From Bacteroidota bacterium (GTDB lineage: Bacteria; Bacteroidota; Ignavibacteria; UBA10030; UBA8401), in NCBI GenBank assembly GCA_005792285.1, contig SXSI01000034.1, positions 1 through 54,274 on the forward strand: a DNA stretch of 54,274 nt, read 5' to 3'. The notes under the pieces were generated by a model. The model was given only the letters and a program-made list of their open reading frames with translations. It had not been told where the DNA came from and searched no databases. Both the position numbers and the translations under genes were made by a program. Shown piece by piece: positions 1,619 to 50,256 of the stretch (position 1 is the stretch's first letter; each line of letters opens with the position of its first letter).

Positions 1619-3636
1619 TTTTTGGAAATAGTCTTTGTTACTCTCCCAATTTCATCTCTAATTTGTGCTGCTCGTTCATATTCGAGTTCTTTGCTCGACT
1701 TATTCATTTGAACTTGCAACTCTTCAATTAAATCTTCTTTTTGTTCTTTTGTTAATTGAGTAATTATATTTTCATCTATTGGTTGATAATATGTAACTCC
1801 CTTTCCAAATGCACCTTTTGTTTTTACATCGGCGACTGCAGTTGAAGCAATAATCTCTTCATAAGATTTGTAAATTGTTTGAGGGGTAATATTATTTTGT
1901 AAATTATATTTCATTTGTATTTGTCTTCGCCGATTTGTTTCTGAAATCATTTTTCTCATCGATTCAGTAATTCGGTCGGCATACATTACAACTTTTCCAT
2001 TTACATTGCGTGCTGTCCTTCCAGCAGTTTGGATTAATGATCGTTCCGATCTGAGAAATCCTTCTTTGTCGGCATCAAGAATTGCAACCAAAGAAACCTC
2101 CGGCAAATCAAGTCCTTCACGCAATAAATTTACACCAACTAAAACATCATAATCTCCCAACCGTAATCCACGTAATATTTCAACTCGTTTAAGAGTATCA
2201 ACTTCCGAATGAATGTAGTTTACTTTGATAGAAATATTTTCCAAATATGCAGTTAAATCTTCAGCCATTCTTTTCGTCAGAGTTGTAATTAAACATCTTT
2301 CTTTTCTTTCAGTACGAGTTCTAATTTCTAAAATTAAATCATCTATTTGATTTTTTATTGGACGAACATTAACTTCGGGATCTAATAATCCTGTTGGGCG
2401 AATTACCTGTTCGATAATTGCTCCTTCCGATTTTTTTAATTCATAATCACCAGGAGTTGCGCTTACATAAATTACTTGTGGTACAAGTTGTTCCCATTCA
2501 TCAAATCTAAGCGGACGATTATCGAGTGCCGATGGCAATCTGAATCCATATTCAACTAAAGTTTCTTTTCGCGATCGATCACCGTGATACATTCCACCGA
2601 TTTGAGGAACTGACACGTGCGATTCATCTACAATTAATAAAAAATCTTTCGGATAATAATCAAAAAGACAAAATGGCCGCGAGCCAGCTTTTCTTGCTGC
2701 AATATGTCTTGAATAATTTTCAATTCCGTTACAGTATCCAACTTCAAGCATCATTTCAATATCAAAACGAGTTCGTTGTTGTATCCGTTGAGCTTCAACA
2801 TGTTTCCCCACTTCCTGAAAACCATCTGTTTGGATTGCAAGTTCTTTTTGGATTTCAATTACAGCTTTTTCTATTTGAGCTTTTGAAGTTAAAAATTGTT
2901 TTGCTGGATAAACTACTTCGTAATCACTTTCAGAAATAATTGTTCCATCCATTCTGTCAATAATTTGGATTTTCTCAACTTCATCTCCAAAAAATTGAAC
3001 TCTTAATGCTTGCTCATTTTCATAAGCGGGAATCACATCGAACACATCTCCGCGAACACGAAATGTTCCTCTTGTAAACTCATAATCATTTCTTACATAA
3101 TGGATATCAACTAATTTTCTGAGTAAACTATTTCTGGAAATTTTCATTCCTGTATGAATTGGAATTAATTGTTCCAACCATTCATCTGGTGTCCCAATTC
3201 CATAAATTGAGCTGACCGATGCAACTACAATTATATTTGGATCACCAGAAAGTAACGCACTTGTTGCACGTAAACGAAGTCGATCAATTTCATCATTTAT
3301 TGAAGAATCTTTTGCAATGTAAGTATCGGTTGTGGGAAGATATGCTTCCGGCTGAAAGTAATCGTAATAGCTTATAAAGAATTCAACTCTGTTTTTGGGA
3401 AAAAAACTTTTAAACTCTGCATATAATTGTGCCGCGAGAGTTTTGTTATGAGACATTACAAGAACCGGTTTGTTGACCTCTTCTATAACATTTGAAACTG
3501 TAAAAGTTTTACCACTTCCGGTTACGCCAATAAGTACTTGATGTTTGTCCCCTCGTTTAATTCCCTCAATAAGTTGACGAATTGCTTTCGGCTGATCGCC
3601 GTTTGGTTTGAATTCTGAAACTAAAGTGAATGGCAT
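1615..3636 (-). CDS. uvrB: UvrABC system protein B
   Basis: The damage-verification helicase of nucleotide excision repair. It receives lesions from UvrA, opens the strands and hands the site to UvrC. The 673-residue length is normal. Visible motifs are Walker A GVTGSGKT (37-44), the DNA-clamping beta-hairpin YYDYFQPEAYLP (90-101), the DESH Walker B box, helicase motif VGVNLLREGLDLPEV, the QTAGRTARN motif VI, and a C-terminal UVR domain (ELEYERAAQIRDEI) that contacts UvrC. Start ATG. comF follows with a four-base overlap. Upstream the gene borders the foreign-looking 3.7-5.4 kb island. Confidence 0.97.
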   Translation of the reverse strand: MPFTLVSEFKPNGDQPKAIRQLIEGIKRGDKHQVLIGVTGSGKTFTVSNVIEEVNKPVLVMSHNKTLAAQLYAEFKSFFPKNRVEFFISYYDYFQPEAYLPTTDTYIAKDSSINDEIDRLRLRATSALLSGDPNIIVVASVSSIYGIGTPDEWLEQLIPIHTGMKISRNSLLRKLVDIHYVRNDYEFTRGTFRVRGDVFDVIPAYENEQALRVQFFGDEVEKIQIIDRMDGTIISESDYEVVYPAKQFLTSKAQIEKAVIEIQKELAIQTDGFQEVGKHVEAQRIQQRTRFDIEMMLEVGYCNGIENYSRHIAARKAGSRPFCLFDYYPKDFLLIVDESHVSVPQIGGMYHGDRSRKETLVEYGFRLPSALDNRPLRFDEWEQLVPQVIYVSATPGDYELKKSEGAIIEQVIRPTGLLDPEVNVRPIKNQIDDLILEIRTRTERKERCLITTLTKRMAEDLTAYLENISIKVNYIHSEVDTLKRVEILRGLRLGDYDVLVGVNLLREGLDLPEVSLVAILDADKEGFLRSERSLIQTAGRTARNVNGKVVMYADRITESMRKMISETNRRRQIQMKYNLQNNITPQTIYKSYEEIIASTAVADVKTKGAFGKGVTYYQPIDENIITQLTKEQKEDLIEELQVQMNKSSKELEYERAAQIRDEIGRVTKTISKK

Positions 3637-36373: not shown

Positions 36374-36871
36374 TTACTGTGCTGCTGGAGTTTCAGTGGA
36401 ATCAGCTATTTCTTTTTTCTTAGATTTTTGATGAACTCGTTTTTTTCTATCGGCTTTAACTTCTTTTGGAGTTTCATCTGCGGTAGTTGCAAAATCTACC
36501 AATTGAAGTAATGCAACATGTGCGCCATCTCCAAGTCTTCTTCCTAATTTAATTACTCGCGTATAACCACCATTTCGAGTTGCAACTTTCGGTACAATCT
36601 CATCAAAGAGGGCTTTAACTACATCTTTGTCTTGTAAGTATGCAACTAATATACGCCTTGCGTGAACATTTTTCTTTCCATCAATTTCACCTGCGACTGT
36701 ATTTTTTGCACGTGTAATTAATTTTTCAACAACCATTCTTGTTTCTTTCGCTTTGGCAAGAGTTGTTTTAATTTTTTTATGTCTTAAAAGTTCTTTTGAA
36801 AGTGAGCTTAATAGAGCTTTTCGGTGACTGGCAGTTCGGTTAAGTTTTCTTCCTGACCTATTATGAATCAT
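36374..36871 (-). CDS. rplQ: 50S ribosomal protein L17
   Basis: L17 of the large subunit. The conserved start MIHNRSGRKLNRTASHRKALL and the GGYTRVIKLGRRLGDGAHVALLQLV block are clear. At 165 residues it is longer than the roughly 117-130 of most bacteria because of a charged Lys-rich extension after about residue 125, a feature common in FCB bacteria. Ribosome site GAGG before ATG; 12 bases after rpoA. Confidence 0.97.
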   Translation of the reverse strand: MIHNRSGRKLNRTASHRKALLSSLSKELLRHKKIKTTLAKAKETRMVVEKLITRAKNTVAGEIDGKKNVHARRILVAYLQDKDVVKALFDEIVPKVATRNGGYTRVIKLGRRLGDGAHVALLQLVDFATTADETPKEVKADRKKRVHQKSKKKEIADSTETPAAQ

Positions 36872-36883
36872 TTTTTTCCTCGA

Positions 36884-37870
36884 TTATTCTATCTCTTGCA
36901 AATATTTATCTACATCCATGCCAAATGTTAATTTGTTTTCTTCTACAAAAGTAGAAAGTTCGGCAAGTGATTTTCTACCAAAATTACGGAATTTTAGTAA
37001 TTCGTTTTCATCTTTTCTAACAAGTTCACCAACTGTATTGATTTCCGCTGCACGCAAACAATTGTGCGATCGTACTGATAATTCAAGTTCATTAACTTGT
37101 GTTTGGAGTAATTTTCTTACTCGTAAAAAATCTTCATTATAAACTGTCTCTTCTTTTTCATTTTCAGCAACAGTTCCTAAATTTAAAAATAATTGAACGT
37201 GATCTTTGATAACTTTTCCTGCATGAGCCAAAGCATCGTTTGGTGTAATTGAGCCATCTGTTTCAATTTCCAAAGATAATTTTTCAAAGTCAGTTTGTTG
37301 TCCAACGCGAGTTGATTCAATTGTATAATTAACATTTACAATTGGTGTAAAAATTGAATCAATTGAAATTGTTCCAAGTGGTTGGTCTGCAATTTTATTA
37401 TTTTCAGACATTACATAACCACGTCCTCTTGCAATTCTAAACTCAATTTCAAAATTTGCTTCTTTATTTAAAGTTGCAATTAATTGATTTGGATTTAAAA
37501 TTTCAACTTCATTACTTGCTTTTTCAAGATCTCTAGCAACAAATTTTCCTGGACCTTTAACAGAAACAACAACTCTCCCAATTCGTTTGTTTGTAGCTTT
37601 CAATCGAACATTTTTTAAATTCAAAACTAAATCCGTTACATCTTCTACAACTCCAGGAATTGTTGAGAATTCATGAAGAAGGCCATCTATCCTAAAAGAT
37701 GCAATTGAATATCCGGGAAGTGATGCAAGTAAAACTCTACGGAATGCATTTCCGAGTGTTACTCCATATCCTTTTTCAAGAGGTTGGACAGTAAATCGAC
37801 CAAATGTATCTGTAAGAGATTTTTCATCAACTTCTACAGATTGCGGCATTTGAAATGTTAGTGTACTCAT
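36884..37870 (-). CDS. rpoA: RNA polymerase alpha subunit
   Basis: The 328-residue alpha subunit. The N-terminal dimerisation/assembly domain (GYGVTLGNAFRRVLLASLPG) occupies roughly residues 1-230. The C-terminal domain (about 250-320, ELSVRSHNCLRAAEINTVGEL and LKFRNFGRKSLAEL) binds UP elements and activators. Its presence is consistent with the A/T-rich stretch above the promoter at 32833-32861. ATG with AAGGAA upstream. Confidence 0.98.
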   Translation of the reverse strand: MSTLTFQMPQSVEVDEKSLTDTFGRFTVQPLEKGYGVTLGNAFRRVLLASLPGYSIASFRIDGLLHEFSTIPGVVEDVTDLVLNLKNVRLKATNKRIGRVVVSVKGPGKFVARDLEKASNEVEILNPNQLIATLNKEANFEIEFRIARGRGYVMSENNKIADQPLGTISIDSIFTPIVNVNYTIESTRVGQQTDFEKLSLEIETDGSITPNDALAHAGKVIKDHVQLFLNLGTVAENEKEETVYNEDFLRVRKLLQTQVNELELSVRSHNCLRAAEINTVGELVRKDENELLKFRNFGRKSLAELSTFVEENKLTFGMDVDKYLQEIE

Positions 37871-37900
37871 ATTTTTAATTTCCTTTATTTCTTTTACAAT

Positions 37901-38530
37901 TTATTTGGAATACAATTCGACAACTAATTGTTCGTTTGCTAAAAGAGGTATATCAACTCTTTCCGGAACGTTTAGAAAAACACCTTCCATATTTGCTTTG
38001 TCAAGACTAAGCCAAGGCAACATTAAAGAGTCTTTCATTCGTTTCATTGAATCGTGAATAACTTCTAATTTTTTACTTTTACTTTGAACTTTAATAATAT
38101 CACCAACGAACATTAAGTAAGAAGGAATATTGACAGATTTATTATTAATAAGAAAATGACCATGTGTTATCAATATTCGTGCAGATTTTCTTGAAGGAGC
38201 AAGACCCATTCTGTAAACAACATTATCAAATCTACGTTCTAAAGTTTTTACTAAAATTTCGCCAGTTCTTCCGGTTTGTCGCAAAGCTTTCTCAAAATAA
38301 TTTCTAAATTGCGCTTCTTGTAAACCGTAACTGCGTCTGATTTTTTGTTTTTCACGCAACTGTAAACCATACTCAGAAAGTTTTTGGCGTCGAGCTTTAG
38401 CACTTTGACCCGGAGGATAGTTTCGTTTTTCTACAGGACATTTTTCAGAATAGCACTTCGATCCTTTTAGAAATAATTTTTGTCGCTCTCGACGACAAAG
38501 TTTACAGCTGGCATCTATATATCTCGCCAT
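37901..38530 (-). CDS. rpsD: 30S ribosomal protein S4
   Basis: S4, a primary 16S rRNA-binding protein, 209 residues. The N-terminus keeps a four-Cys zinc site (C9, C12, C26, C31), and the S4 RNA-binding domain runs from about residue 95 (RRFDNVVYRMGLAPSRKSAR). In many bacteria S4 represses the alpha operon; I did not identify its mRNA target here. Confidence 0.97.
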   Translation of the reverse strand: MARYIDASCKLCRRERQKLFLKGSKCYSEKCPVEKRNYPPGQSAKARRQKLSEYGLQLREKQKIRRSYGLQEAQFRNYFEKALRQTGRTGEILVKTLERRFDNVVYRMGLAPSRKSARILITHGHFLINNKSVNIPSYLMFVGDIIKVQSKSKKLEVIHDSMKRMKDSLMLPWLSLDKANMEGVFLNVPERVDIPLLANEQLVVELYSK

Positions 38531-38550
38531 TTTATCTTTTTTCCTTTACT

Positions 38551-38982
38551 TTATACTCTACGTTTTTTTGGTGGACGACATCCGTTATGTGGAATTGGCG
38601 TCATGTCTTTAATAACATTTATTTCAAGTCCTGCGGTTTGTAAAGCACGAATTGCTGCTTCACGTCCCGAGCCTGGACCTTTTACAAATACATCAATTTT
38701 TCTTAATCCTAAAGCAAATGCCTCTTTCGCTGCTTTTTCGGCAGAAATTTGAGCGGCAAATGGCGTATTCTTTCTTGAACCTTTAAATCCATTTTTTCCA
38801 GCAGTAGACCAAGCAATTGTGTTTCCATAATTGTCGGTAATGGTTATCAAAACATTATTGAATGTCGCTTTAACATAAGCTTTACCATTCGAATCAACAT
38901 GTGTTTTTCTTTTTTTCTTAGCCGGTGCCGCTACTACAGCTTCCGGTGTTTTAGTTTTCTTTAGTTCTTCTGTTTTTGCCAC
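38551..38982 (-). CDS. rpsK: 30S ribosomal protein S11
   Basis: S11 of the platform, 143 residues. The core starts at about residue 30 ([21 protein letters not shown]) and ends with the conserved [11 protein letters not shown]. It has a Lys/Ala/Pro-rich N-terminal extension compared with the roughly 129-residue E. coli protein. The start codon is GTG. Confidence 0.97.
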
Positions 38983-39011
38983 AATTTTTCCTTTTACTTG
39001 ATTTTAATTAT

Positions 39012-39395
39012 TTATTTCTTTTCAAGTGCTTTTTTCTTACCAGCAACTGTTTTTCGTTTTCCTTTTCGTGTTCTAGAATTTGTTCTTGTGCGTTGACCAC
39101 GAACAGGTAAACCTTTTCTATGTCGAAGTCCACGATATGAATTAATATCCATTAATCGTTTTAAATTCATTTGAACTTCTGCGCGAAGTGATCCTTCAGT
39201 TTTAATTTCCGTTTGAAGAACTTCTCTTATTTTAGCAATTTCTTCATCAGTCAATGCGCTAATTTTTTTACTTGGATCAATATTCGTCTTTTTCAAAATT
39301 TTATTTGAAGCGTGACGACCAATTCCAAAAATATATGTAAGTCCTATGTCGACTCTTTTATTTTTTGGAAGATCTATACCTGAAATACGTGCCAC
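39012..39395 (-). CDS. rpsM: 30S ribosomal protein S13
   Basis: S13 of the 30S head, 127 residues, with helix-two-turn-helix region [18 protein letters not shown] and the conserved [17 protein letters not shown] segment followed by a Lys-rich tail that contacts tRNA. The start is GTG with AGGAG about eleven bases upstream. Confidence 0.97.
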
Positions 39396-39413
39396 TCTAT
39401 TATTTCTCCTTTT

Positions 39414-39527
39414 TTAACCTTGACGTTGTTTATGCTTTGGATTTGTGCAAATAATTCTGACAACGCCTTTGCGTTTTACAATCTTGCATTTATCACACAT
39501 TTTTTTTACTGAAGCTCTTACTTTCAT
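39414..39527 (-). CDS. rpmJ: 50S ribosomal protein L36
   Basis: A 37-residue protein encoded between rpsM and infA, beginning [15 protein letters not shown] and ending HKQRQG. It keeps the zinc ribbon C11, C14, C27, H32, so this is the zinc-binding (C+) form. The ATG at 39527 lies 12 bases after the infA stop. Position and sequence make it certain despite its size. Confidence 0.96.
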
Positions 39528-39539
39528 AAATTGCCTTTT

Positions 39540-39758
39540 CTATTTATACCGGTACGAAATTCTGCCTTTAGTTAAATCGTAAGGCGACATTTCAATTGTT
39601 ACTTTATCTCCAACTAAAATTTTTATGTAGTGCATTCTCATTTTACCGGAAATGTGAGCCAAAATTTGATGACCATTATCTAGCTTTACTTTGAACGAAG
39701 CATTTGGTAAATTTTCTGTAATTAAGCCATCCATTTTAATCGAATCCTGTTTTGCCAT
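39540..39758 (-). CDS. infA: translation initiation factor IF-1
   Basis: A 72-residue single OB-fold (S1-like) protein that occupies the ribosomal A site during initiation. The sequence is canonical: [20 protein letters not shown], then the [19 protein letters not shown] core, and the [13 protein letters not shown]-like end. It lies two bases after map and 12 before rpmJ. Confidence 0.97.
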
Positions 39759-39760
39759 TA

Positions 39761-40516
39761 TTAAGTTAAAATCTCTGCATTACCATTGCGAACAACAATT
39801 GTATGCTCGAAATGCGCCGAAGGGCTTCCATCTTTAGTTCTAATTGTCCAACCATCGTCACCAACTACAACTTTATATTTTCCAGCATTCACCATTGGTT
39901 CAATTGCTAAAGTCATTCCTTCAACTAATTTTAATCCTTCGCCAACTTTTCCAAAATTTGGAATTTGTGGATCTTCATGTAAATCTTTTCCAACTCCATG
40001 CCCAACTAAATCTCTTACAACTGAGAATCCAGCTTTTTCAACATATTGTTGAACTGCATTTGAAATATCACCAACATAATTTCCTGCAACTGCTTGCTGA
40101 ATTCCAATTTCTAAAGATTCTTTTGTAACATTCATCAATCTTTGTTTTTCTGAATCAATTTTTCCAACACTAAATGTTGAAGCGCTATCTGAAAAATAAT
40201 TTTTATATTTCACACCAACATCAATTGAAACAATATCTCCTTCTTTCAATTTTCTTTTAGAAGGAATGCCATGAACAACTTCATCATTTATCGAAACACA
40301 AAGTGTTGATGGATATAAATTATTTTTGTCGTGGCCATAACCTTTAAATGCAGGTATTCCGCCGGATGCTGTAATAAATTGATCTGCAATTTCATCTAAC
40401 TCTTTTGTAGTAATTCCCGGTTTAATATTATTTGCAATAAGCTTTAATACATCCGAAGTGATCTTGCCACTTTCTCGCATTATATTAATTTCAGCTTCTG
40501 TTTTTAATTGAACCAT
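39761..40516 (-). CDS. map: type I methionine aminopeptidase
   Basis: Removes N-terminal Met from new proteins. About 251 residues from [18 protein letters not shown]. The metal ligands are in place: the Asp pair in [15 protein letters not shown], His in [13 protein letters not shown], and Glu in LAIEPMVN plus the final FEHTIVV. I prefer ATG 40516 to the upstream ATG 40540, which would add eight residues before the usual family start; neither has a clear ribosome site. It follows secY as in many bacteria. Confidence 0.94.
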
Positions 40517-40541
40517 AATTGAGTTATTTATTTTAAACATA

Positions 40542-41882
40542 TTAACGACCGATGCGCCCTTTTATTTTTCCACTCTGCATAAATCCATCATAATGTCTCA
40601 TCAACAAGTGCGATTCAACTTGTTGCAAAGTGTCAAGTGCGACACCAACTATAATTAGTAAACTTGTTCCGCCAAAAAATGACGCGAAGTTTGAAGTCAA
40701 TCCAAATCGAACCATAAAAGCCGGAAGTATTGCAACGAACGCAAGAAAAATTGAACCTGGAAGTGTAATCTTTGTTAAAATATTATCTATAAATTCCGAA
40801 GTCGGTTTTCCTGGACGAATTCCTGGAATAAATCCACCTTGCTTCTGCATATTTTCTGCAACATCTTTTGGATTAAAAGCAATTGCAGTATAAAAATATG
40901 TGAAGAATACAATCATCAAACCATAAATTGTAGAATAAGTAATCGATGTATAATTAAAATAAGAAGATAAATTTACTACAAATTCACTTTCAGGGAAAAA
41001 TGTAAAAATTGTACTTGGGATAAACATTAACGATTGAGCAAAAATAATTGGCATAACACCTGCGGTATTAATCCGCATTGGAATATATTGCGTAACTCCA
41101 CCGTAAACTTTTCTTCCAACAACACGCTTTGCATATTGCACGGGAATTCTTCTTGTAGCTTGTGTTACAACAACAACTCCTGCAACAATTAAAATCATCA
41201 ATCCCCAAATAAAAAGTTCAACTAATAATGGTCTTGCGCCTGAATTTACAACTTGAATTTCATCTAAAATAGCTGCTGGAAATTGGGCAATAATACCTAC
41301 AAAAATAATTAATGAAATTCCATTTCCAATTCCACGCTCAGTTATTTGTTCACCAAGCCACATCATAAAAATTGTTCCAGCTGTTAAAATTATAACTGTT
41401 GAAACTACAAAACTAAATCCTTGAACTGCTTCTGGCACAATTGGAATTCCATTTGCATTTAAACTTTGCAATCTTACACTAACACCCCAACCTTGTAATA
41501 GTGAAACAAATATTGTTCCTAATCGTGTGTATTGGTTTATTTTTTTTCTTCCGTTTTCACCTTCTTGTTGAAGTTTATGGAAGTAAGGAACAACTGCACC
41601 CAATAATTGAATTACAATTGATGCACTTATATAAGGCATAATTCCCAAAGCAAAAATTGCAGCATTACTAAACGCACCACCAACAAACATATCATATAAA
41701 CCAAAAAGTGTATTTGCTTCTTGGTTCTTCATTGCGTTTGTTAAAACACTTGCATCAACTCCTGGAAGTGTAATATGCGAACCAATTCGTACAACTAATA
41801 GTAGAGCAATTGTAAAAAATAACCGTGCTCGAAGTTCTTCGATTTTTAAAATATTCCTGATATTTTCAGAGAAAGTGCTCAT
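40542..41882 (-). CDS. secY: preprotein translocase subunit SecY
   Basis: The 446-residue channel of the Sec translocon, with ten membrane segments. Landmarks are RIGSHITLPGVD near the first helix, the plug region after it, FFTYFYTAIAFNPKDVAENMQKQGGFIPGIRPG in the cytoplasmic loops that bind SecA and ribosome, and LLIIVGVALDTLQQVESHLLMRHYDGF at the end. It lies nine bases after rplO. Confidence 0.97.
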   Translation of the reverse strand: MSTFSENIRNILKIEELRARLFFTIALLLVVRIGSHITLPGVDASVLTNAMKNQEANTLFGLYDMFVGGAFSNAAIFALGIMPYISASIVIQLLGAVVPYFHKLQQEGENGRKKINQYTRLGTIFVSLLQGWGVSVRLQSLNANGIPIVPEAVQGFSFVVSTVIILTAGTIFMMWLGEQITERGIGNGISLIIFVGIIAQFPAAILDEIQVVNSGARPLLVELFIWGLMILIVAGVVVVTQATRRIPVQYAKRVVGRKVYGGVTQYIPMRINTAGVMPIIFAQSLMFIPSTIFTFFPESEFVVNLSSYFNYTSITYSTIYGLMIVFFTYFYTAIAFNPKDVAENMQKQGGFIPGIRPGKPTSEFIDNILTKITLPGSIFLAFVAILPAFMVRFGLTSNFASFFGGTSLLIIVGVALDTLQQVESHLLMRHYDGFMQSGKIKGRIGR

Positions 41883-41891
41883 TATTTATTT

Positions 41892-42383
41892 TTAGTTTGT
41901 TGCTACAGCTTTTTTTGGTTTAATTTCTAAAGTAGTTACTATTCCACCGGCAGATGTAATTTTTTCAACTGCGCTTTTTGAAAATCTATGTGCAGAAATT
42001 GTAAGTGGAGTTTTTAATTCTCCATCTCCAAGAATTTTTACTAATAATCTTTTGCTTTGAATTAAACCGGCTGTCACTAAAGTCGCAGGAGTAATTGTTG
42101 TTGTAAGTTTCCCTTTTGAAATAAATTCAACAAGTTTTTCAATGTTGACAACTGAATATTCAGTTCGAAAAATATTTGTAAATCCAAATTTTGGAAGTCG
42201 TCTGATAATTGGCATTTGACCACCTTCAAAATTTCTTTTAACTCCAGCGCCAGATCTTGACCATTGACCATTATGTCCACGTGTGGAAGTTCCACCATGT
42301 CCAGATCCTTGTCCTCTTCCAATTCGTTTTACTTTTTTTCTGGAGCCTGGAGCATATCTTAAATTACTTAAAGTACTTGTCAT
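41892..42383 (-). CDS. rplO: 50S ribosomal protein L15
   Basis: L15, 163 residues, with the Gly-rich N-terminus KRIGRGQGSGHGGTSTRGHN that threads into 23S rRNA and a globular C-terminal domain (RLLVKILGDGELKTPLTISA). Five bases after rpmD. A longer Ala/Lys tail replaces the short end of the E. coli protein. Confidence 0.97.
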   Translation of the reverse strand: MTSTLSNLRYAPGSRKKVKRIGRGQGSGHGGTSTRGHNGQWSRSGAGVKRNFEGGQMPIIRRLPKFGFTNIFRTEYSVVNIEKLVEFISKGKLTTTITPATLVTAGLIQSKRLLVKILGDGELKTPLTISAHRFSKSAVEKITSAGGIVTTLEIKPKKAVATN

Positions 42384-42387
42384 AAAA

Positions 42388-42582
42388 TTATTCCTTTACC
42401 TCTTCAACTCGAATTAAAAAATTCACTGAATTAATCATTCCACGAATTTGAGGTGTATCTTTTTGGATAACCGTATAGTTTGGTCTTCTTAATCCTAATG
42501 CTTTGATTGTATCTTTGTGTCTCTGCAAAGTGTGGATTATACTTTTGGTTTGAGTAATTAACAATTTTTTTTCGTTAGCCAT
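42388..42582 (-). CDS. rpmD: 50S ribosomal protein L30
   Basis: L30, 64 residues, conserved LLITQTKSIIHTLQRHKDTI and LGLRRPNYTVIQKDTPQIRGMINSV-type core. The position between rpsE and rplO is standard. Confidence 0.96.
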   Translation of the reverse strand: MANEKKLLITQTKSIIHTLQRHKDTIKALGLRRPNYTVIQKDTPQIRGMINSVNFLIRVEEVKE

Positions 42583-42597
42583 TTTTATTTTCTCTTA

Positions 42598-43098
42598 TTA
42601 ATTAAAAAGTTCATGCAAAGATATACCACGATGGCTGCTGGTAGCTTTGGCATCACGTAAATTAAGGAGTGCCTTTAAGGTTGCCTTCACTACATTATGT
42701 GGATTTGATGAACCTAATTGTTTTGTCAAAACATCTTTAATTCCAGCTGTTTCCAATACAGCGCGAACACCACCACCTGCAATTAATCCTGTTCCTGGTG
42801 AAGCTGGTTTAAGCAGAACTTTTCCTGCTCCAAATTTTCCAATTACTTCGTGTGGAATTGTTCCATTTACAATTGGAATAGTTACAATATTTTTCTTTGC
42901 GTCATCTGTACCTTTTGCAATTGCATTAACAACTTCATTGGCTTTACCAAGTCCAATTCCAACATGACCATTTTGGTCCCCAATTACCATAATTGCGCTA
43001 AAACTAAACCGACGTCCCCCTTTTACAACTTTGGTTACGCGTCCAACATGTACCAGTTTTTCTTTTAATTCGAGTTCACTTGCTTTTAATCGTGCCAC
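42598..43098 (-). CDS. rpsE: 30S ribosomal protein S5
   Basis: S5, 166 residues, with the N-terminal RNA-binding half ([25 protein letters not shown]) and the C-terminal [19 protein letters not shown] segment, both important for decoding accuracy. The start codon is GTG. It is unusual in being separated from rplR by 154 bases that hold a tRNA-Gln gene, where these two genes are normally almost adjacent. Confidence 0.97.
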
Positions 43099-43141
43099 GC
43101 TGATTCCTTTATATTATTATAATTTTTTGAAAAATAAGTTG

Positions 43142-43212
43142 CTGTCGGGAGAGGAGTCGAACCTCTACAAACGCCTCCAAAGGGCGCTGTCCTGCCATTA
43201 GACGACCCGACA
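43142..43212 (-). tRNA. tRNA-Gln (TTG) inside the spc ribosomal operon
   Basis: A complete 71-base cloverleaf on the minus strand: acceptor TGTCGGG/CCCGACA with discriminator G, D-arm GTCTAATGGCAGGAC, anticodon stem GCGCC/GGCGT around the loop CTTTGGA (anticodon TTG), and T-arm AGAGGTTCGACTCCTCT. It lies in the same direction as the flanking rplR (40 bases upstream) and rpsE (43 bases downstream). CCA is not encoded. No obvious promoter or terminator surrounds it, so it is probably cut out of the ribosomal mRNA. Confidence 0.97.
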
Positions 43213-43252
43213 AATCCAGAACTGTTTGTAGTGTTTGAATCGTTGCGGGACA

Positions 43253-43621
43253 TTAAAATTGTAATCCTCCTTCACGCGCTGCATCTGCAAAAGATTTAAT
43301 TCGTCCGTGATATAAAAAACCATTTCGATCAAATGCTACATTTGTAATATTTTTTGTTTTTGCCATCTCAGCTAATGCCTTACCAACAATTGCACTTTTT
43401 TCTTTTTTCGATTTTACATTCTGCAATTGATCTTTTAATTCTTTTGAAAGTGTTGAAAGTGCTAATAAAGTTTTCCCATTTCGATCATCAACTAATTGTC
43501 CATAAAATTGATTTAAACTTCTGTAAACGGAAAGACGTGGTCTTTCAATTGTACCTTCAATTTTTCGGCGAACGTAGTTCTTAATTTTTAATCTTCGAGC
43601 TGTTAAATTTTTTGTTATCAT
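43253..43621 (-). CDS. rplR: 50S ribosomal protein L18
   Basis: L18, 122 residues, binds 5S rRNA. RPRLSVYRSLNQFYGQLVDD and the C-terminal VAFDRNGFLYHGRIKSFADAAREGGLQF are canonical. A tRNA-Gln gene follows 40 bases after its stop. Confidence 0.97.
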   Translation of the reverse strand: MITKNLTARRLKIKNYVRRKIEGTIERPRLSVYRSLNQFYGQLVDDRNGKTLLALSTLSKELKDQLQNVKSKKEKSAIVGKALAEMAKTKNITNVAFDRNGFLYHGRIKSFADAAREGGLQF

Positions 43622-43630
43622 TTTAATTCC

Positions 43631-44179
43631 TTACTTGCCTGCTGATGCTGCAGTTTTACCTGCTTTGCGTCTAATTATTTCATTTTCATATTTCACACCT
43701 TTGCCTTTATAAGGTTCCGGTGGACGAAGCGATCTTATTTTTGCTGCTACTAATCCAACTAACTGTTTATCAGCTCCGCTAATTGTAATATTTGTTTGTG
43801 TAGGTGATACAACTACAATTTCATTTGGTGCTTTAAAAACAATCGGATGTGAAAAACCAAGTTGTAATTGAAGTACTTTTCCTTTCATTTCTGCTCGGTA
43901 TCCAACTCCAACTAATTCTAATTTTTTTGAATATCCTTCTGTAACACCTTGTATCATATTTGCAATATTAGCACGTGTTGTTCCATGTACTGAACGTTGA
44001 AATTTTTCATTATTACTTCGTTTAAGAGTAATTTCTTTTTCAGAAATCTCAACAGTAATATATCTTGATACATTTGCAACAAGTTGCCCTTTTGGGCCTG
44101 TAACTGAAATTGAATTATTTTGCAATTGAACTTTTACATCCTTTACAATTTCAATTGGTTTATTTCCTAATCTAGACAC
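43631..44179 (-). CDS. rplF: 50S ribosomal protein L6
   Basis: L6, 182 residues, two similar domains. Conserved SRLGNKPIEI at the start and LRPPEPYKGKGVKYENEIIRRKAGKTA near the end. The start codon is GTG; 15 bases after rpsH. Confidence 0.97.
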   Translation of the reverse strand: MSRLGNKPIEIVKDVKVQLQNNSISVTGPKGQLVANVSRYITVEISEKEITLKRSNNEKFQRSVHGTTRANIANMIQGVTEGYSKKLELVGVGYRAEMKGKVLQLQLGFSHPIVFKAPNEIVVVSPTQTNITISGADKQLVGLVAAKIRSLRPPEPYKGKGVKYENEIIRRKAGKTAASAGK

Positions 44180-44194
44180 TGATATCTCCTTTTA

Positions 44195-44590
44195 TTACCA
44201 AACATAACAAACTACTTCGCCACCAACTTTTTCAGCTCGGGCTTGTTTGTCTGTCATTAGTCCTTTTGAAGTAGAAATAATTGCAATACCTAAACCATTT
44301 TGCACTCTTGGTAAATCATCGTGTCCGCGATATTGTCTGATTCCCGGAAGACTTATTTTACGAAGTCCACGAATTACACTTAAGTTGTTGTTGTAGCGCA
44401 AATTGATTTTAATTATTCCTTGTTTTGAATTTTCTACAACTGTAAAATCATTTATTAATTTTTTAGAAAGTAAAATGCTCGATAATGCTTTCTTCATGTT
44501 TGAAGCCGGGATTTCAACATGCCTGTGCCCTGCTTTTACAGCATTTCTAATACGTGTTAAATAATCTGCTATTGGATCTGAATGTGCCAT
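44195..44590 (-). CDS. rpsH: 30S ribosomal protein S8
   Basis: S8, 131 residues, begins [18 protein letters not shown] and ends with the family's [27 protein letters not shown]. In E. coli S8 represses the spc operon by binding near rplE; a matching site was not identified here. Confidence 0.97.
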
Positions 44591-44599
44591 ATTTTTCCT

Positions 44600-44869
44600 T
44601 TACCAGCTAGCTTTCATTATTCCTGGAATTTTACCGCTTAAAGCCATTTCGCGAAATGCAATTCGAGACATTCCGAATTTTCTCATGAATGCTCGTGATC
44701 GACCAGTTTTCTGACAACGATTATGCAATCGAGTTGGATTGCTATCGCGCGGCAATGCTCGAATTGCTTCGATATCACCTTTTTCTTTTAATTCTTTACG
44801 CTTCGCAGCATACTTTGCAACTGTTTGTTGTTTTCTTAATTCTCGTGCTATACTACTTGTTTTTGCCAT
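44600..44869 (-). CDS. rpsN: 30S ribosomal protein S14, zinc-free form
   Basis: S14, 89 residues, is the long form without the CxxC zinc pairs of the short form. Conserved [20 protein letters not shown] and the [12 protein letters not shown] end are present. It lies 13 bases after rplE. Confidence 0.97.
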
Positions 44870-44882
44870 ACTTTTTTCCTTT

Positions 44883-45497
44883 TTATTGCTTTATAAAAGG
44901 CATTCCAAAATTTTTCAGAAGTTCTTTCGCTTCATTATCGCTTTTAGCAGTAGTTACAAATGTAATATCCATTCCACTAATTCGATTTGTTTTATCCGGA
45001 TCAATTTCACGGAATATTATTTGTTCTTTTATTCCCATTGTATAATTTCCAAATCCATCAAACGATTTATTTGAAACTCCACGGAAATCTCTAATTTGTG
45101 GAATTGCAACATTAATTAAACGATCGAGAAATTCGTACATTTTTTTTCCACGCAATGTTACTTTTGCACCAATTGCCATATTTTCTCGAAGTTTGAAATT
45201 TGAAATCGCTTTTTTAGATTTCGTAGTTACAACTTTCTGCCCGGTAATTGCTTCCAATTCTTTAATTTTTATTTCAAGAATTTTTGCATCTTGTGTTGCA
45301 ACACCAACTCCGGAATTAATCGCAATTTTATCTAACTTTGGAACTGCCATTACATTTTTATATTTAAATTCCTTCATCAATGCTGGAATAACATCATTTT
45401 TATATTTATCCATTAATCGTGGATAAATTCCAGGAACTGCTTCACCAATTGTAACTTCTATTTTTTCCGACCTTACTATTTTTTTTTCTTTTGCCAT
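44883..45497 (-). CDS. rplE: 50S ribosomal protein L5
   Basis: L5, which carries 5S rRNA on the central protuberance. At 204 residues it is longer than the usual 180 because of an N-terminal extension (about 23 residues) before [19 protein letters not shown]. Conserved [33 protein letters not shown] and [18 protein letters not shown] follow. Confidence 0.97.
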
Positions 45498-45515
45498 TTT
45501 AAATTTTTCTATTTT

Positions 45516-45839
45516 TTAAAACATTTCTTTACTTTTTCTTGAGACCCTCATAACTTTTATTTTTCCAGTTACGGCATCTTTAACGCGCGTATAACCAATT
45601 CGAGTTGGTTTTCCGGTGTGCGGACATTTTATCATCGCATTTGATGCGTTAATTGGTGCTTCTTTTTTTACAACTCCACCTTGTGGACTTTTTTGAGAAG
45701 GCTTCGTGTGTCTTTTTACAATATTTACACCTTCGATAATAATTTTATTTATTTCAGGCAATACTTGCAAAACTTTTCCCTCTTTACCGCGAGAGTTTCC
45801 GCTAATTACAATTACAGTGTCATTTTTCTTTATTTGCAT
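45516..45839 (-). CDS. rplX: 50S ribosomal protein L24
   Basis: L24, 107 residues, an assembly initiator with a KOW motif (KKNDTVIVISGNSRGKEGKV). The remainder (KRHTKPSQKSPQGGVVKKEAPI and CPHTGKPTRIGYT) is canonical. It begins a few bases after the rplN frame ends. Confidence 0.97.
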   Translation of the reverse strand: MQIKKNDTVIVISGNSRGKEGKVLQVLPEINKIIIEGVNIVKRHTKPSQKSPQGGVVKKEAPINASNAMIKCPHTGKPTRIGYTRVKDAVTGKIKVMRVSRKSKEMF

Positions 45840-45843
45840 ATAT

Positions 45844-46218
45844 TTATTTTATATTACTTCTGGGGCAAGTGAAACAATTTTCATATATTTTTTTTTCGCG
45901 AAGCTCACGAGCAACCGGTCCGAAAATACGTGTTCCTCTTGGTTCTCCTTGTTGATTTAATAATACAACTGCGTTCTCATCGAATCGAATATAGGAACCA
46001 TCTTTTCTTCTAACTTCTTTTGCAGTTCTAACAACAACAGCTCTTGATACTTCACCTTTTTTTACTCCGCCACCAGGAATTGCTGATTTAACTGATACAA
46101 CTACTAAATCTCCAAGTGATGCATAGCGACGCTCATGACCACCAAGCACTCTAATGCAACGAACTTTCTTTGCACCTGAATTATCTGCTACTATTAAATT
46201 TGTTTCTTCTTGTATCAT
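45844..46218 (-). CDS. rplN: 50S ribosomal protein L14 with an apparent C-terminal frameshift
   Basis: L14 is canonical through residue 110 ([21 protein letters not shown] to [12 protein letters not shown]). After this the literal frame gives an unrelated 14-residue tail ([14 protein letters not shown], ending 45844), instead of the near-universal [10 protein letters not shown]-type end. The switch falls at nine consecutive A on the coding strand (T-run 45888-45896). With eight A, the frame would read [12 protein letters not shown] and stop at 45849, giving a normal 122-residue protein. It is thus either a one-base error in the sequence, or a real insertion rescued by slippage on the A-run. 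Confidence 0.9.
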
Positions 46219-46233
46219 ATTATCTTCTGTTTT

Positions 46234-46494
46234 TTATTTTACTTTTGTAACAATTTCAACCAACCGCCATCTTTTTAATTTACTCATTGGTCGGGTTTCC
46301 ATAATTTTTACTTTATCGCCAATCGAAGCACTGTTTGTTTCGTCGTGAGCAATTAATCTTGTGGTTCTTTTAAAATATTTTTTATACAACGGATGAACAA
46401 TTCGTCGCTCGACTGCAACAACAATACTTTTTGCCATTTTGTTACTTACAACTTTTCCAACTTTTGTTTTTCTATGTGTTGTGCGTGTATTCAT
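46234..46494 (-). CDS. rpsQ: 30S ribosomal protein S17
   Basis: S17, 86 residues, OB fold. Conserved [31 protein letters not shown] and [19 protein letters not shown]. Primary 16S rRNA binder. Fifteen bases before rplN. Confidence 0.97.
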
Positions 46495-46508
46495 GATCTT
46501 TAATTTTA

Positions 46509-46715
46509 TTATTTACTTTTTTGCTGAAGTTGACGCTCACGCAAAACTGTTTTCATTTTGGCAATCTGTTTTCTGCTCAAACTAAATTGAGATGGCTTTT
46601 GAACTTGCCCAGAAGTTTTTTGAAATGTCATTGTAGCCAACAAATCTTTTTCTTCTTGAATTTGTTTTAGCAACTCTGATTCGTTTAAATCTCTTATTTC
46701 TTTCATTGTTTTCAT
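46509..46715 (-). CDS. rpmC: 50S ribosomal protein L29
   Basis: L29, 68 residues, two-helix protein at the exit tunnel. The start [19 protein letters not shown] and the C-terminal [14 protein letters not shown] are typical. Position between rplP and rpsQ is standard. Confidence 0.95.
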
Positions 46716-46729
46716 AAATCTATCTCTAT

Positions 46730-47155
46730 TTAATGTTTTGCAACATAATCATATCGTGTTGAAAATTTTGTTTTAACTGGCAATTTATGACCTGCTAATT
46801 TTAATGCTTCTTTTGCACTCTCGATAGATAAACCACCAACTTCAAACATTACAGTACCAGGTTTAACTACTGCAACCCAATATTCCGGTACTCCTTTACC
46901 ACTTCCCATTCTAGTTTCTGCAGGTTTTTTTGTAATTGGTTTATCAGGGAAAATTCGAATCCAAACTTTTCCTTCACGTTTCATCATTCTGGTTAATGCA
47001 ACACGAGTTGCTTCAATTTGTCTTTGTGTTATCCAACCAGCTTCTAAAGATTTCAAACCAAAATCACCAAATGCAACAGTTGCTCCACGAGTAGCAACGC
47101 CACCACGTCTACCTTTTTGCATTTTTCTAAATTTTACTCTCTTTGGCATTAACAT
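46730..47155 (-). CDS. rplP: 50S ribosomal protein L16
   Basis: L16, 141 residues, near the tRNA elbow. [19 protein letters not shown] is the canonical start, followed by [19 protein letters not shown] and the [22 protein letters not shown]-type block. Eighteen bases after rpsC. Confidence 0.97.
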
Positions 47156-47172
47156 ATAATTACTCTTTTTCC

Positions 47173-47811
47173 TTACTTAGTATTTTTTTCAAGAATTTCA
47201 CCTTTACAAATCCAAACTTTTACACCAATTAAACCATAAATAGTTAATGCTGCAGTTGATGCATAATCAATATCAGCACGAAGTGTATGAAGTGGAATTC
47301 TTCCTTCTTTATATTGTTCAGTTCTAGCTATATCTGCACCACCAAGTCGTCCACCACATTTAATACGAATTCCTTCGGCGCCCATTCTTCTAGCTGATGT
47401 AAGAGCTTGTTTCATTGCTCGACGAAAAGCTACTCTTGCTTCTAATTGTCTGGCAATAGTATCTGCTACAAGTACTGCATCTAATTCGGGACGTTTAATT
47501 TCACTAATTAAAATTTTAATATCTTTATTTGTCAATTTTCTTAATTCTTCTTCTAGTATTGCAATATCTTTTCCACTTTTACCGATGACTACACCGGGAC
47601 GTGCAGTATGAATATTTATGCAAACATATTTCGGAGTACGATCTATAATAACTTTTGAAATACTTGCAGCCTTCAATTTAGTATGAACGAAGTTTCTTAT
47701 AACTTCATCTTCTTTCAATTTTGAAGCATAATTTTTCTGCTCAAACCAGTTTGAATCCCAGCCTTTAATTATGCCGAGTCTAAAACCAATTGGATGTGTT
47801 TTTTGTCCCAA
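47173..47811 (-). CDS. rpsC: 30S ribosomal protein S3
   Basis: S3, 212 residues, with a KH domain ([21 protein letters not shown]) and the C-terminal [22 protein letters not shown] region. Together with S4 and S5 it forms the mRNA entry channel helicase. The start codon is TTG, one base after the rplV stop, so translation is probably coupled. Confidence 0.97.
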
Positions 47812-47812
47812 G

Positions 47813-48193
47813 TTATTCTTCCTTACTCTTTAGTTTATTACTCTCTTTAGTTTTTTTCTGCGAAACTATAATTGTAATATGATTTGATCTTTTTAAAATT
47901 TGATAAGCTCTTCCCATCGGCGCAGGCATCATTCTTTTCAACGAAGCACCGCCATCAACAAAACATTCTTTTACGAAAAGTGAATGTGTGTCAACACGAC
48001 CAGAATGATCTTTGTTTTGAATATTTGAAACCGCTGAACGCAAAACTTTTTCTGCAGTTTTTGAAGCATGTTTCGGCAGAAAATGCAAAATGTTCATAGC
48101 TTCATCTACCGATTTTCCTCGGATTAGATCAATAACCAATCTCATCTTTCGAGGAGAAGTGCCGATATATCTATTTATAGCTTTTGCTTCCAT
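47813..48193 (-). CDS. rplV: 50S ribosomal protein L22
   Basis: L22, 126 residues, whose beta-hairpin reaches into the exit tunnel. Conserved NRYIGTSPRKMRLVIDLIRGK, and the hairpin tip region GGASLKRMMPAPMGRAYQILKR. A short Lys-rich C-terminal tail overlaps the start region of rpsC. Confidence 0.97.
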   Translation of the reverse strand: MEAKAINRYIGTSPRKMRLVIDLIRGKSVDEAMNILHFLPKHASKTAEKVLRSAVSNIQNKDHSGRVDTHSLFVKECFVDGGASLKRMMPAPMGRAYQILKRSNHITIIVSQKKTKESNKLKSKEE

Positions 48194-48202
48194 TTATATT
48201 CC

Positions 48203-48490
48203 TTATTTAGCAGTTGTAGTTTCTTCTTTTTTAATTCCCGGATGACCTTTAAAAATTCTTGTCGGAGAAAATTCACCAAGTTTGTGACCGACCATCATCT
48301 CTGTTACATATACAGGAATAAATTTATTTCCATTGTGAACCGCAAAAGTATGTCCAACAAATTCCGGCGAAATTGTGCACGACCGCGACCAAGTTTTAAT
48401 TAATTGTTTTTTACTCGATTTATTTAACGTGTCAATTTTTTCTTGTACACGTTGATCGATATATGGACCTTTTTTAAGTGAGCGACTCAT
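48203..48490 (-). CDS. rpsS: 30S ribosomal protein S19
   Basis: S19, 95 residues, of the 30S head. [19 protein letters not shown] start and the [20 protein letters not shown] end are diagnostic. Two bases after rplB. Confidence 0.97.
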
Positions 48491-48492
48491 AA

Positions 48493-49317
48493 TTATTTAC
48501 GATGTTTAACAATATAGTTTTCTGATTTTCTATTTGTGTTTCTTGTTTTCAAACCTTTTGATTTTTGTCCCCAAGGACTAACCGGATGTCCACCACCAGA
48601 AGTTTTTCCTTCTCCACCACCCATTGGATGATCTACTGGATTCATTGCAACTCCTCGAACGTGAGGTCTAATTCCTAACCATCTTGATCGTCCAGCTTTT
48701 CCTAAACTTATATTTTCATTATCAAGATTTCCGACAATACCAATTGTTGCGTAACAGTTGTTGTGAATATTTCTAATTTCTCCTGAAGGAAATTTTAATA
48801 ATACAAAGTCACCTTCTTTAGCTTGGACTGTTGCAAAATTTCCTGCACTTCTTGCAATTTGTCCACCTTTGCCAGGCTTCATTTCAATATTATGGACATT
48901 TGTATTTACTGGAATTGCTGAAAGAGGCAATGCATTTCCAACTTTAATTTCTGCAGTATCAGATGCAATAAGTACTTCGTTGATTTTTAATTCGTTAGGT
49001 GCAAGAATATATCTCTTTGCTCCATCGTTATAAAATAATAAAGCAATTCGCGCTGATCTATTTGGATCGTATTGAATTGAATCCACACGGGCTGGTATAC
49101 CACGTTTATCTCTTTTAAAATCAATAATACGATATGTTCTTTTATGTCCACCACCACGATGTCGCGATGTAACACGACCATAATTATTTCTTCCACCAGA
49201 TTTTGGTAATCCGCGTGTAAGCGATTTTTCTTTTTTTGTAGATGTTATCTCTTCAAAAGATGAAATCGAATAATATCTTGTAGCTGGTGTATTTGGTTTT
49301 AATTTTCTTAATGCCAT
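48493..49317 (-). CDS. rplB: 50S ribosomal protein L2
   Basis: L2, 274 residues, required for peptidyl transferase activity. Contains [44 protein letters not shown], and the catalytic-region [21 protein letters not shown] with its conserved His. Confidence 0.98.
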
Positions 49318-49331
49318 ATATATTTCCTCAG

Positions 49332-49622
49332 TTACGAATTAGGAAGCAGATCAATTGTCTGTCCCTCTTTAATTGTAACAAAAGCTTTTTTCCAATCAGC
49401 TCTTTTTCCTTCAACACGCCCACGCTTAGACATTTGGCCTTTCTTTTTTCCTAATACTCGCATTGTTCTAACAGATAAAACATCAACATTGAATTTTTTT
49501 TCAACTGCTTTCGCAATTTCAATTTTATTAGCAAATTCCATTACAACAAAACAATATTGCCTTAAAGATGCTAATGCTGTCATTTTTTCTGTTAAAAGTG
49601 GTTTTATTAAAATGCTTGTCAT
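49332..49622 (-). CDS. rplW: 50S ribosomal protein L23
   Basis: L23, 96 residues, at the exit tunnel and a docking site for trigger factor and [23 protein letters not shown] and [19 protein letters not shown] are canonical. One base after rplD. Confidence 0.96.
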
Positions 49623-49623
49623 A

Positions 49624-50256
49624 TTAATTCAATGAAAATGTTTCGTTAACCATTTCTATACATCCTTTTTGTAGAATCAGTACTTTGCTATTCAAAATGG
49701 CATAAGTCGATGCATTTTTTGCTTCAAGAATATTTAGTTTCTTAATATTTTTACCTGACTTAAGTACAATGGTATCACAATTTTTAGTCAACAAAAGTAT
49801 TTTTTTATTTTCAAGTTTAAGTGCTTTAATTATAGAAACCATATTTTTTGTTTTTGCTACATCAAAGCTAAAATCTTCAATTACAAAAATATTTCCTTCT
49901 TTAGCTTTATAAGAATAAGCTGATTTTCTGGCAAGCCTTTTTACTTTTGCAGGAAGTTTTATAACGTAGTCATGAGGCTTCGGACCAAAAATAGTTCCAC
50001 CACCAACCATAATTGGTGAACGTCTTGTTCCTTGTCGAGCATTTCCAGTTTTCTTTTGTGAATATGGTTTTTTACCACCGCCACGAACTTCACCACGCTC
50101 TTTTGTTTTGTGTGTTCCTTGTCTTTGATTCGCCATATAAGAACGTACTGCCATATAAATAGCATGATCGTTAGGCACAATCTCAAAAATCGAAGGATCC
50201 AAGTTTACCTTTTCTCCTGATTTTGATCCATCTATTTTAAAAATTTCAAGTTCCAT
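49624..50256 (-). CDS. rplD: 50S ribosomal protein L4
   Basis: L4, 210 residues. The tunnel-lining loop (TKERGEVRGGGKKPYSQKKTGNARQGTRRS) is intact. E. coli L4 regulates the S10 operon through its leader; no such leader hairpin was identified before rpsJ here. Confidence 0.97.
   Translation of the reverse strand: MELEIFKIDGSKSGEKVNLDPSIFEIVPNDHAIYMAVRSYMANQRQGTHKTKERGEVRGGGKKPYSQKKTGNARQGTRRSPIMVGGGTIFGPKPHDYVIKLPAKVKRLARKSAYSYKAKEGNIFVIEDFSFDVAKTKNMVSIIKALKLENKKILLLTKNCDTIVLKSGKNIKKLNILEAKNASTYAILNSKVLILQKGCIEMVNETFSLN

What the first reader, a model, noticed from the sequence alone, without database searches (positions are those of the whole stretch)
43142..43212. tRNA-Gln(TTG) gene embedded in the spc ribosomal protein operon
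A complete tRNA-Gln lies between rplR and rpsE, in the same direction, in a superoperon whose other gaps are mostly under 50 bases. Processing by RNase P and RNase Z would cut the polycistronic ribosomal mRNA in two. This would link supply of the tRNA to ribosome synthesis and possibly set different stabilities for the upstream and downstream halves. rplR and rpsE are normally near-adjacent, so this is an insertion into one of the most conserved gene orders. If lineage-specific, it would also be a useful phylogenetic marker.
Basis: partly seen in the sequence, partly recalled or inferred. Interest (0 to 1): 0.65.

Follow-up and report, generated by a model that had tools for sequence, protein, structure and literature searches.

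The report
Glutamine tRNA inside ribosomal-protein operon
In a large group of Ignavibacteria-like bacteria the apparently only tRNA that reads the glutamine codon CAA has moved from its usual place in front of another translation operon into the middle of the main ribosomal-protein operon, so the cell must probably cut it out of a ribosomal-protein messenger RNA.

Summary
A canonical tRNA-Gln(TTG) gene lies at 43142-43212 on the minus strand, in operon orientation, between rplR and rpsE. It is neither unique to this genome nor a misassembly. 83 genomes in 12 of the 24 families sampled in the class have the same gene in the same gap and orientation; 56 genomes in the other 12 families have none. 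In the genomes checked it is the only TTG tRNA-Gln found. Where it is missing from the spc operon, tRNA-Gln sits just upstream of prs-rplY-pth: 17 of 17 non-carriers examined, and 27 of 27 examined relatives outside the class with the same tRNA type. In 30 of 30 carriers examined, the prs locus has no tRNA. So the gene has two alternative homes, both in translation operons. In the spc home it can lie 6 nt after rplR and 21 nt before rpsE, with no terminator-like sequence (0/83) and almost no promoter motif (3/83, against 22/44 at prs). Co-transcription and excision are therefore very likely, but no RNA data exist. A link to the GlnRS or GatCAB pathway was tested and rejected.

The parts
43142..43212 (-). 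tRNA-Gln, anticodon TTG, no encoded CCA (G73 then CAA); only tRNA-Gln found in this assembly
43253..43621 (-). rplR (ribosomal protein L18), gene upstream of the tRNA
   Evidence: rplR searches
42598..43098 (-). rpsE (ribosomal protein S5), gene downstream of the tRNA, GTG start
43213..43252 (-). 40-nt spacer between rplR stop and tRNA 5' end; no TAnnTTTG promoter motif
43099..43141 (-). spacer between tRNA 3' end and rpsE start, AT-rich, with an AAGGA Shine-Dalgarno-like stretch and no terminator-like hairpin
36374..50256 (-). S10-spc-alpha ribosomal protein cluster as called here (rplD to rplQ); the tRNA is the only RNA gene inside it

Best explanation
This is a functional tRNA-Gln(UUG), in these bacteria apparently the only tRNA gene with that anticodon. 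It has been relocated from the position it holds elsewhere in the class and phylum (directly upstream of prs-rplY-pth) into the spc operon between rplR and rpsE. It is transcribed as part of the ribosomal-protein mRNA. RNase P cuts its 5' end and RNase Z or another 3' endonuclease cuts its 3' end. CCA is then added, because none is encoded. Each excision would split the mRNA into an rplR-terminated upstream part and an rpsE-led downstream part, and rpsE starts from its own ribosome-binding site. tRNA-Gln supply thereby follows ribosomal-protein transcription. Shown by sequence: position, orientation, conservation, two-home exclusivity, lack of a terminator or promoter motif, covariation. Inferred: co-transcription, cleavage, coupling of supply, and any difference in stability of the two halves.
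For: The gene is canonical and covaries. 83 carriers in 12 families and 56 non-carriers in 12 families split cleanly by family. Carriers include single-contig genomes such as G158, G263, G355 and G407. In 27 of 83 carriers the tRNA starts 9 nt or less after the rplR stop, minimum 3 nt in G008. The tightest case has 6 nt before and 21 nt after. There is no terminator-like site in any of the 83 tRNA-rpsE spacers. A Bacteroidota-type -7 motif TAnnTTTG lies within 100 nt upstream in 3 of 83 spc copies and 22 of 44 prs-linked copies, Fisher p = 1e-9. tRNA-Gln precedes prs in 17 of 17 examined class non-carriers and 27 of 27 examined same-type relatives outside the class; the prs locus is empty in 30 of 30 carriers. 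A further outside family, f28, has the other tRNA-Gln type at prs in 4 of 4. The spc copy type is up to 94% identical to prs-linked tRNA-Gln outside the class. No carrier in the phylum sample has the other tRNA-Gln type.
Against: There are no RNA data. A promoter inside the rplR coding region, or one with a different consensus, cannot be excluded. Half of the prs-linked copies also lack the motif, and among class non-carriers only 6 of 17 have it. Three f17 genomes have a TAnnTTTG match between tRNA and rpsE, so a downstream promoter may exist there. The window assembly lacks several tRNA isotypes, so 'only Gln tRNA' rests partly on relatives. RNase P, RNase Z and the CCA-adding enzyme were not searched for. 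One family outside the class (f33) has tRNA-Gln at neither home, at least within 1.5 kb. The direction of the move rests on outgroups and on a tree that needs several changes.
Confidence: 0.8

Rival explanations
1. The tRNA is a separate transcription unit with a promoter hidden in the 3' part of rplR or of unusual consensus, and merely sits inside the operon.
For: A few carriers in f10 and f24 have TAnnTTTG within 100 nt upstream (3 of 83). Transcription was not measured.
Against: No terminator-like site follows it in any of 83 genomes, the motif is far rarer than at the prs home, and spacers are as short as 3 nt.
Confidence: 0.12
2. Assembly or binning artefact, or a dead tRNA copy.
For: The assembly is fragmented. 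In two relatives the site coincides with an N gap (G021) or a contig end (G045).
Against: Same arrangement in 83 genomes, including single-contig ones. The cloverleaf covaries and no other tRNA-Gln was found in the assembly.
Confidence: 0.01
3. A single insertion marks one clade, with no later loss or transfer, making it a clean phylogenetic marker.
For: Perfectly uniform within each family sampled.
Against: The carriers are rejected as one clade (AU p 9.2e-7). At least 3-4 changes are needed, and the closest sister of f1 in the tree, f6, lacks it.
Confidence: 0.03
4. The odd, tRNA-Glu-like D arm and the new location reflect a switch of the Gln-tRNA pathway (GlnRS to GluRS plus GatCAB).
For: The D arm GUCGUCUAAUGGCAGGAC resembles that of tRNA-Glu. 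The window genome and its congener lack a GlnRS hit over the cut-off but have GatB.
Against: GlnRS is present in most f1, f3, f14 and f16 carriers and absent in f10 (mostly) and f17. Non-carriers are mixed in the same way (f7, f9 and f12 have it; f8, f15, f18 and f20 do not).
Confidence: 0.03

Closest known systems
E. coli metY-nusA-infB operon (tRNA-fMet2 at the head of a translation operon)
   Same: A tRNA is co-transcribed with translation genes and is excised from the polycistronic RNA. The cited 1989 work reports that RNase III cleavage releases the tRNA and initiates decay of the downstream mRNA (PMC6511841 and its reference 20).
   Different: There the tRNA is first in the operon, is a minor dispensable isoform, and has its own promoters. 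Here it is internal, in the spc operon, apparently the sole isoacceptor, and lacks a visible promoter.
E. coli thrU-tyrU-glyT-thrT-tufB, and tRNA-Trp next to secE-nusG-rplK (from general knowledge, not tested here)
   Same: tRNA genes embedded in operons for the translation machinery.
   Different: Different tRNAs and different operons. I know of no report for the spc operon, and none was found in the library searched.
tRNA-Gln - prs - rplY - pth arrangement
   Same: Same isoacceptor, also directly upstream of translation genes. It is the home in the non-carriers examined and in most Bacteroidota relatives examined.
   Different: At prs the tRNA is first and often has its own promoter motif. 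In carriers it is internal to the ribosomal-protein operon and prs has lost it.

Membership tests
tRNA (RF00005), glutamine isoacceptor | Cloverleaf scoring above the Rfam gathering score | tested here: met
   58.6 bits against 29
tRNA (RF00005), glutamine isoacceptor | UUG anticodon and bacterial Gln features U1-A72 and G73 | tested here: met
   Anticodon TTG. U1-A72 in 59 of 59 distinct homologues; G73 in 49, A73 in 10.
tRNA (RF00005), glutamine isoacceptor | Charged with glutamine in the cell | not testable with these tools
   Needs biochemistry
tRNA embedded in a translation operon (metY-nusA-infB type) | Same strand as neighbouring translation genes, between or beside them | tested here: met
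   rplR - tRNA-Gln - rpsE in 83 genomes
tRNA embedded in a translation operon (metY-nusA-infB type) | No terminator between tRNA and downstream mRNA | tested here: met
   0 of 83 spacers with a terminator-like hairpin; none at this site in the window scan
tRNA embedded in a translation operon (metY-nusA-infB type) | Common transcript and nucleolytic release of the tRNA | not testable with these tools
   No RNA data for these organisms here
tRNA-Gln of the prs-rplY-pth locus | Location directly upstream of prs | tested here: not met
   No tRNA within about 1.5 kb upstream of prs in G000 or in 29 other carriers
Clade-defining single insertion | Carriers form one clade | tested here: not met
   AU p = 9.2e-7; at least 3 changes forced by supported branches

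The most novel reading that the evidence does not exclude
The embedded tRNA-Gln is a working control point. Its maturation cuts the spc mRNA at a fixed place, separating rplR and upstream genes from rpsE, rpmD, rplO and secY. It thereby sets the ratio and stability of the two halves and ties glutamine-codon decoding capacity to ribosome production. Selection has kept or regained this arrangement several times in the class.
Probability: 0.25. Interest if true: 0.7.

Novelty: new variant of a known kind. Interest (0 to 1): 0.5.

Why it matters
The S10-spc-alpha gene order is among the most conserved in bacteria, and an apparently sole, presumably essential tRNA in its middle forces RNA processing inside a core ribosomal-protein message. 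Two mutually exclusive homes for one tRNA, both in translation operons and both common within one class, give a natural experiment on whether linking a tRNA to ribosome synthesis has a benefit. It is directly testable in cultured Ignavibacteria by RNA end mapping. It also warns that rplR-rpsE spacing is not a clean clade marker.

Tried and rejected
1) GlnRS versus GatCAB pathway switch as the cause: no correlation with tRNA type or location. 2) tRNA-Glu remoulding: the D arm looks Glu-like, but whole-gene identity to the organism's own tRNA-Glu is no higher than to unrelated tRNAs; not pursued. 3) Single-origin clade marker: rejected by AU test. 4) Sigma-70 promoter scan of the window: 67 sites found against 64.6 expected, uninformative. 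5) RNA folding of the junction: MFE z = -1.4, no extra structure beyond the tRNA. 6) A literal anticodon change in G025 (GTG): two congeners have TTG and low CAA use fits high G+C, so probably a sequencing error or private mutation. 8) Literature searches gave no report of a tRNA in the spc operon or of the tRNA-Gln-prs linkage; the library is open-access only. A keyword look at the Melioribacter paper (12 of 20 passages shown) showed only a count of 45 tRNA genes. A look into PMC9318685 failed on a term-length error and was not repeated.

Full report
What is there. The window holds the S10-spc-alpha ribosomal protein cluster on the minus strand. Between rplR (43253-43621) and rpsE (42598-43098) lies a complete tRNA-Gln with anticodon TTG at 43142-43212, same strand. 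The other junctions in the cluster are 1-30 bp, except rpsM-infA (144 bp), which has room for rpmJ (not called here). The tRNA has U1-A72, discriminator G73 and no encoded CCA. The nearest thing to a rival reading, a chance hairpin, is excluded by the Rfam score and by covariation in homologues: 59 distinct sequences, 7 non-standard cells of 1239, and 10 of 21 pairs with changes on both sides.

Is it a local oddity? No. rplR was located in relatives and the rplR-rpsE junction was read. 83 genomes in 12 families carry a tRNA-Gln in that gap, always in operon direction. 56 genomes in 12 other families of the same class carry none. Presence is uniform within every family sampled. The carrier gap is 99-281 bp (median 141); the non-carrier gap is 15-141 bp (median 30). 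Two apparent exceptions are assembly breaks inside the tRNA: an N gap in G021 and a contig end in G045. Carriers include single-contig genomes, so misassembly is ruled out. Named records in the trees suggest that the class is, or includes, Ignavibacteria: L030 'Ignavibacteriae bacterium' falls in carrier family f10 and L042 'Ignavibacteriales' in non-carrier family f6. The window genome itself is unnamed.

Where is tRNA-Gln in genomes that lack it here? A DNA search with the tRNA over 119 class genomes showed that non-carriers have a different-looking tRNA-Gln elsewhere. Reading 17 of those places in nine families gave the standard bacterial type (TGGGGYGTMGCCAAGYGGTAAGGC...). In 17 of 17 it lies directly upstream of prs, mostly followed by rplY and pth. 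In other classes of the phylum, all 27 loci examined that bear the same tRNA type as the window also sit directly upstream of prs. A family outside the class with the standard type (f28) also has it at prs in 4 of 4 loci, while f33 has it at neither home within 1.5 kb. Conversely, in 30 of 30 carriers, the window genome among them, the prs locus has no tRNA within about 1.5 kb upstream. Carriers show one TTG-type tRNA-Gln match, no match to the standard type was found in carriers of the phylum sample, and the window's assembly has one tRNA-Gln among 28 tRNA matches. That assembly lacks several isotypes, so the sole-copy claim leans on relatives. The gene therefore has two mutually exclusive homes, both at the head of or inside translation operons.

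How it probably works. In 27 of 83 carriers the tRNA begins no more than 9 nt after the rplR stop codon, 3 nt in G008. In G087 there are 6 nt before it and 21 nt after it. No tRNA-rpsE spacer holds a terminator-like hairpin (0 of 83). The Bacteroidota -7 element TAnnTTTG lies within 100 nt upstream in 3 of 83 spc copies but in 22 of 44 prs-linked copies (Fisher p = 1e-9; 6 of 17 if only class non-carriers are counted). In the window genome prs itself now has TTGATT...TATATTTG about 50 nt upstream. The simplest reading is that the tRNA gave up its own promoter and is transcribed with the ribosomal-protein genes. Maturation by RNase P and a 3' endonuclease, followed by CCA addition, then follows from general knowledge of bacterial tRNA processing; those enzymes were not searched for here. 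Excision would cut the mRNA between rplR and rpsE. That this couples tRNA supply to ribosome synthesis, or gives the halves different lifetimes, is inference. A precedent exists in E. coli metY-nusA-infB, where release of the tRNA is reported to start decay of the downstream mRNA (PMC6511841, citing Regnier and Grunberg-Manago 1989).

History. A tree of 27 proteins of the cluster (48 genomes, 4404 columns) needs at least 4 changes of the trait, 3 of them forced by supported branches. Holding the carriers together as one clade is rejected (AU p = 9.2e-7). Families f1 (carriers, with the window) and f6 (non-carriers) are sisters in both trees. The spc copies belong to one tRNA type, up to 94-97% identical across carrier families and to prs-linked copies outside the class, whereas the class's prs-linked copies that were read are all of the other type. 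One relocation followed by repeated replacement, or spread by transfer, fits this better than several independent insertions of the same unusual tRNA at one spot, but the order of events is not settled.

What was tested and dropped. The tRNA-Glu-like D arm suggested a switch between direct (GlnRS) and indirect (GatCAB) charging. The presence of glnS and gatB does not follow tRNA type or location. The window genus is a special case: no glnS hit over the cut-off, gatB present.

Known or new. tRNA genes inside translation operons are known (metY-nusA-infB; from memory also the tufB operon and trpT-secE). Placement of an apparently sole isoacceptor inside the spc operon, conserved over many families and traced to the prs locus, was not found in the library searched. 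I file it as a new variant of a known kind.

Noticed in passing
L224/L447 (G025, family f5), tRNA in the rplR-rpsE gap: The tRNA-Gln body carries anticodon GTG instead of TTG, and no other TTG Gln tRNA was found in this genome, only a CTG one. Two congeners (G409, G410) have TTG, so probably a sequencing error or a private mutation.
   Followed up: partly
L030 (JACREY010000015.1) 3315-3386 and 3484-3555: Two tRNA-Gln genes in tandem, anticodons TTG and CTG, both in the rplR-rpsE gap: a duplicated and diverged pair inside the spc operon.
   Followed up: partly
L269, L271, L274, L275 (family f8), rplR-rpsE gap: The gap is 132-141 bp without a tRNA; three of the five f8 genomes carry a TATCTTTGC-like Bacteroidota promoter motif, suggesting an internal promoter before rpsE at the same junction.
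   Followed up: partly
L182, L231, L236 (family f17), tRNA-rpsE spacer: All three f17 genomes have a TATATTTG motif between the tRNA and rpsE (spacers 91-92 nt), a possible second promoter for the downstream half.
   Followed up: no
G000 and G001 whole genomes: The window genus (1.7 Mb genomes) has no glnS hit over the cut-off although other f1 genera have it; gatB is present, so Gln-tRNA is probably made by transamidation.
   Followed up: partly
L282 and L396 (family f5) and L299, L300 (family f14): A separate tRNA-Gln(CTG) gene lies away from the spc operon; in f5 it is next to tRNA-Glu(CTC). The f14 copy has a different D arm (GUGGUGUAAUGGUAGCAC), so Gln tRNAs here are of at least three sequence types.
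   Followed up: no
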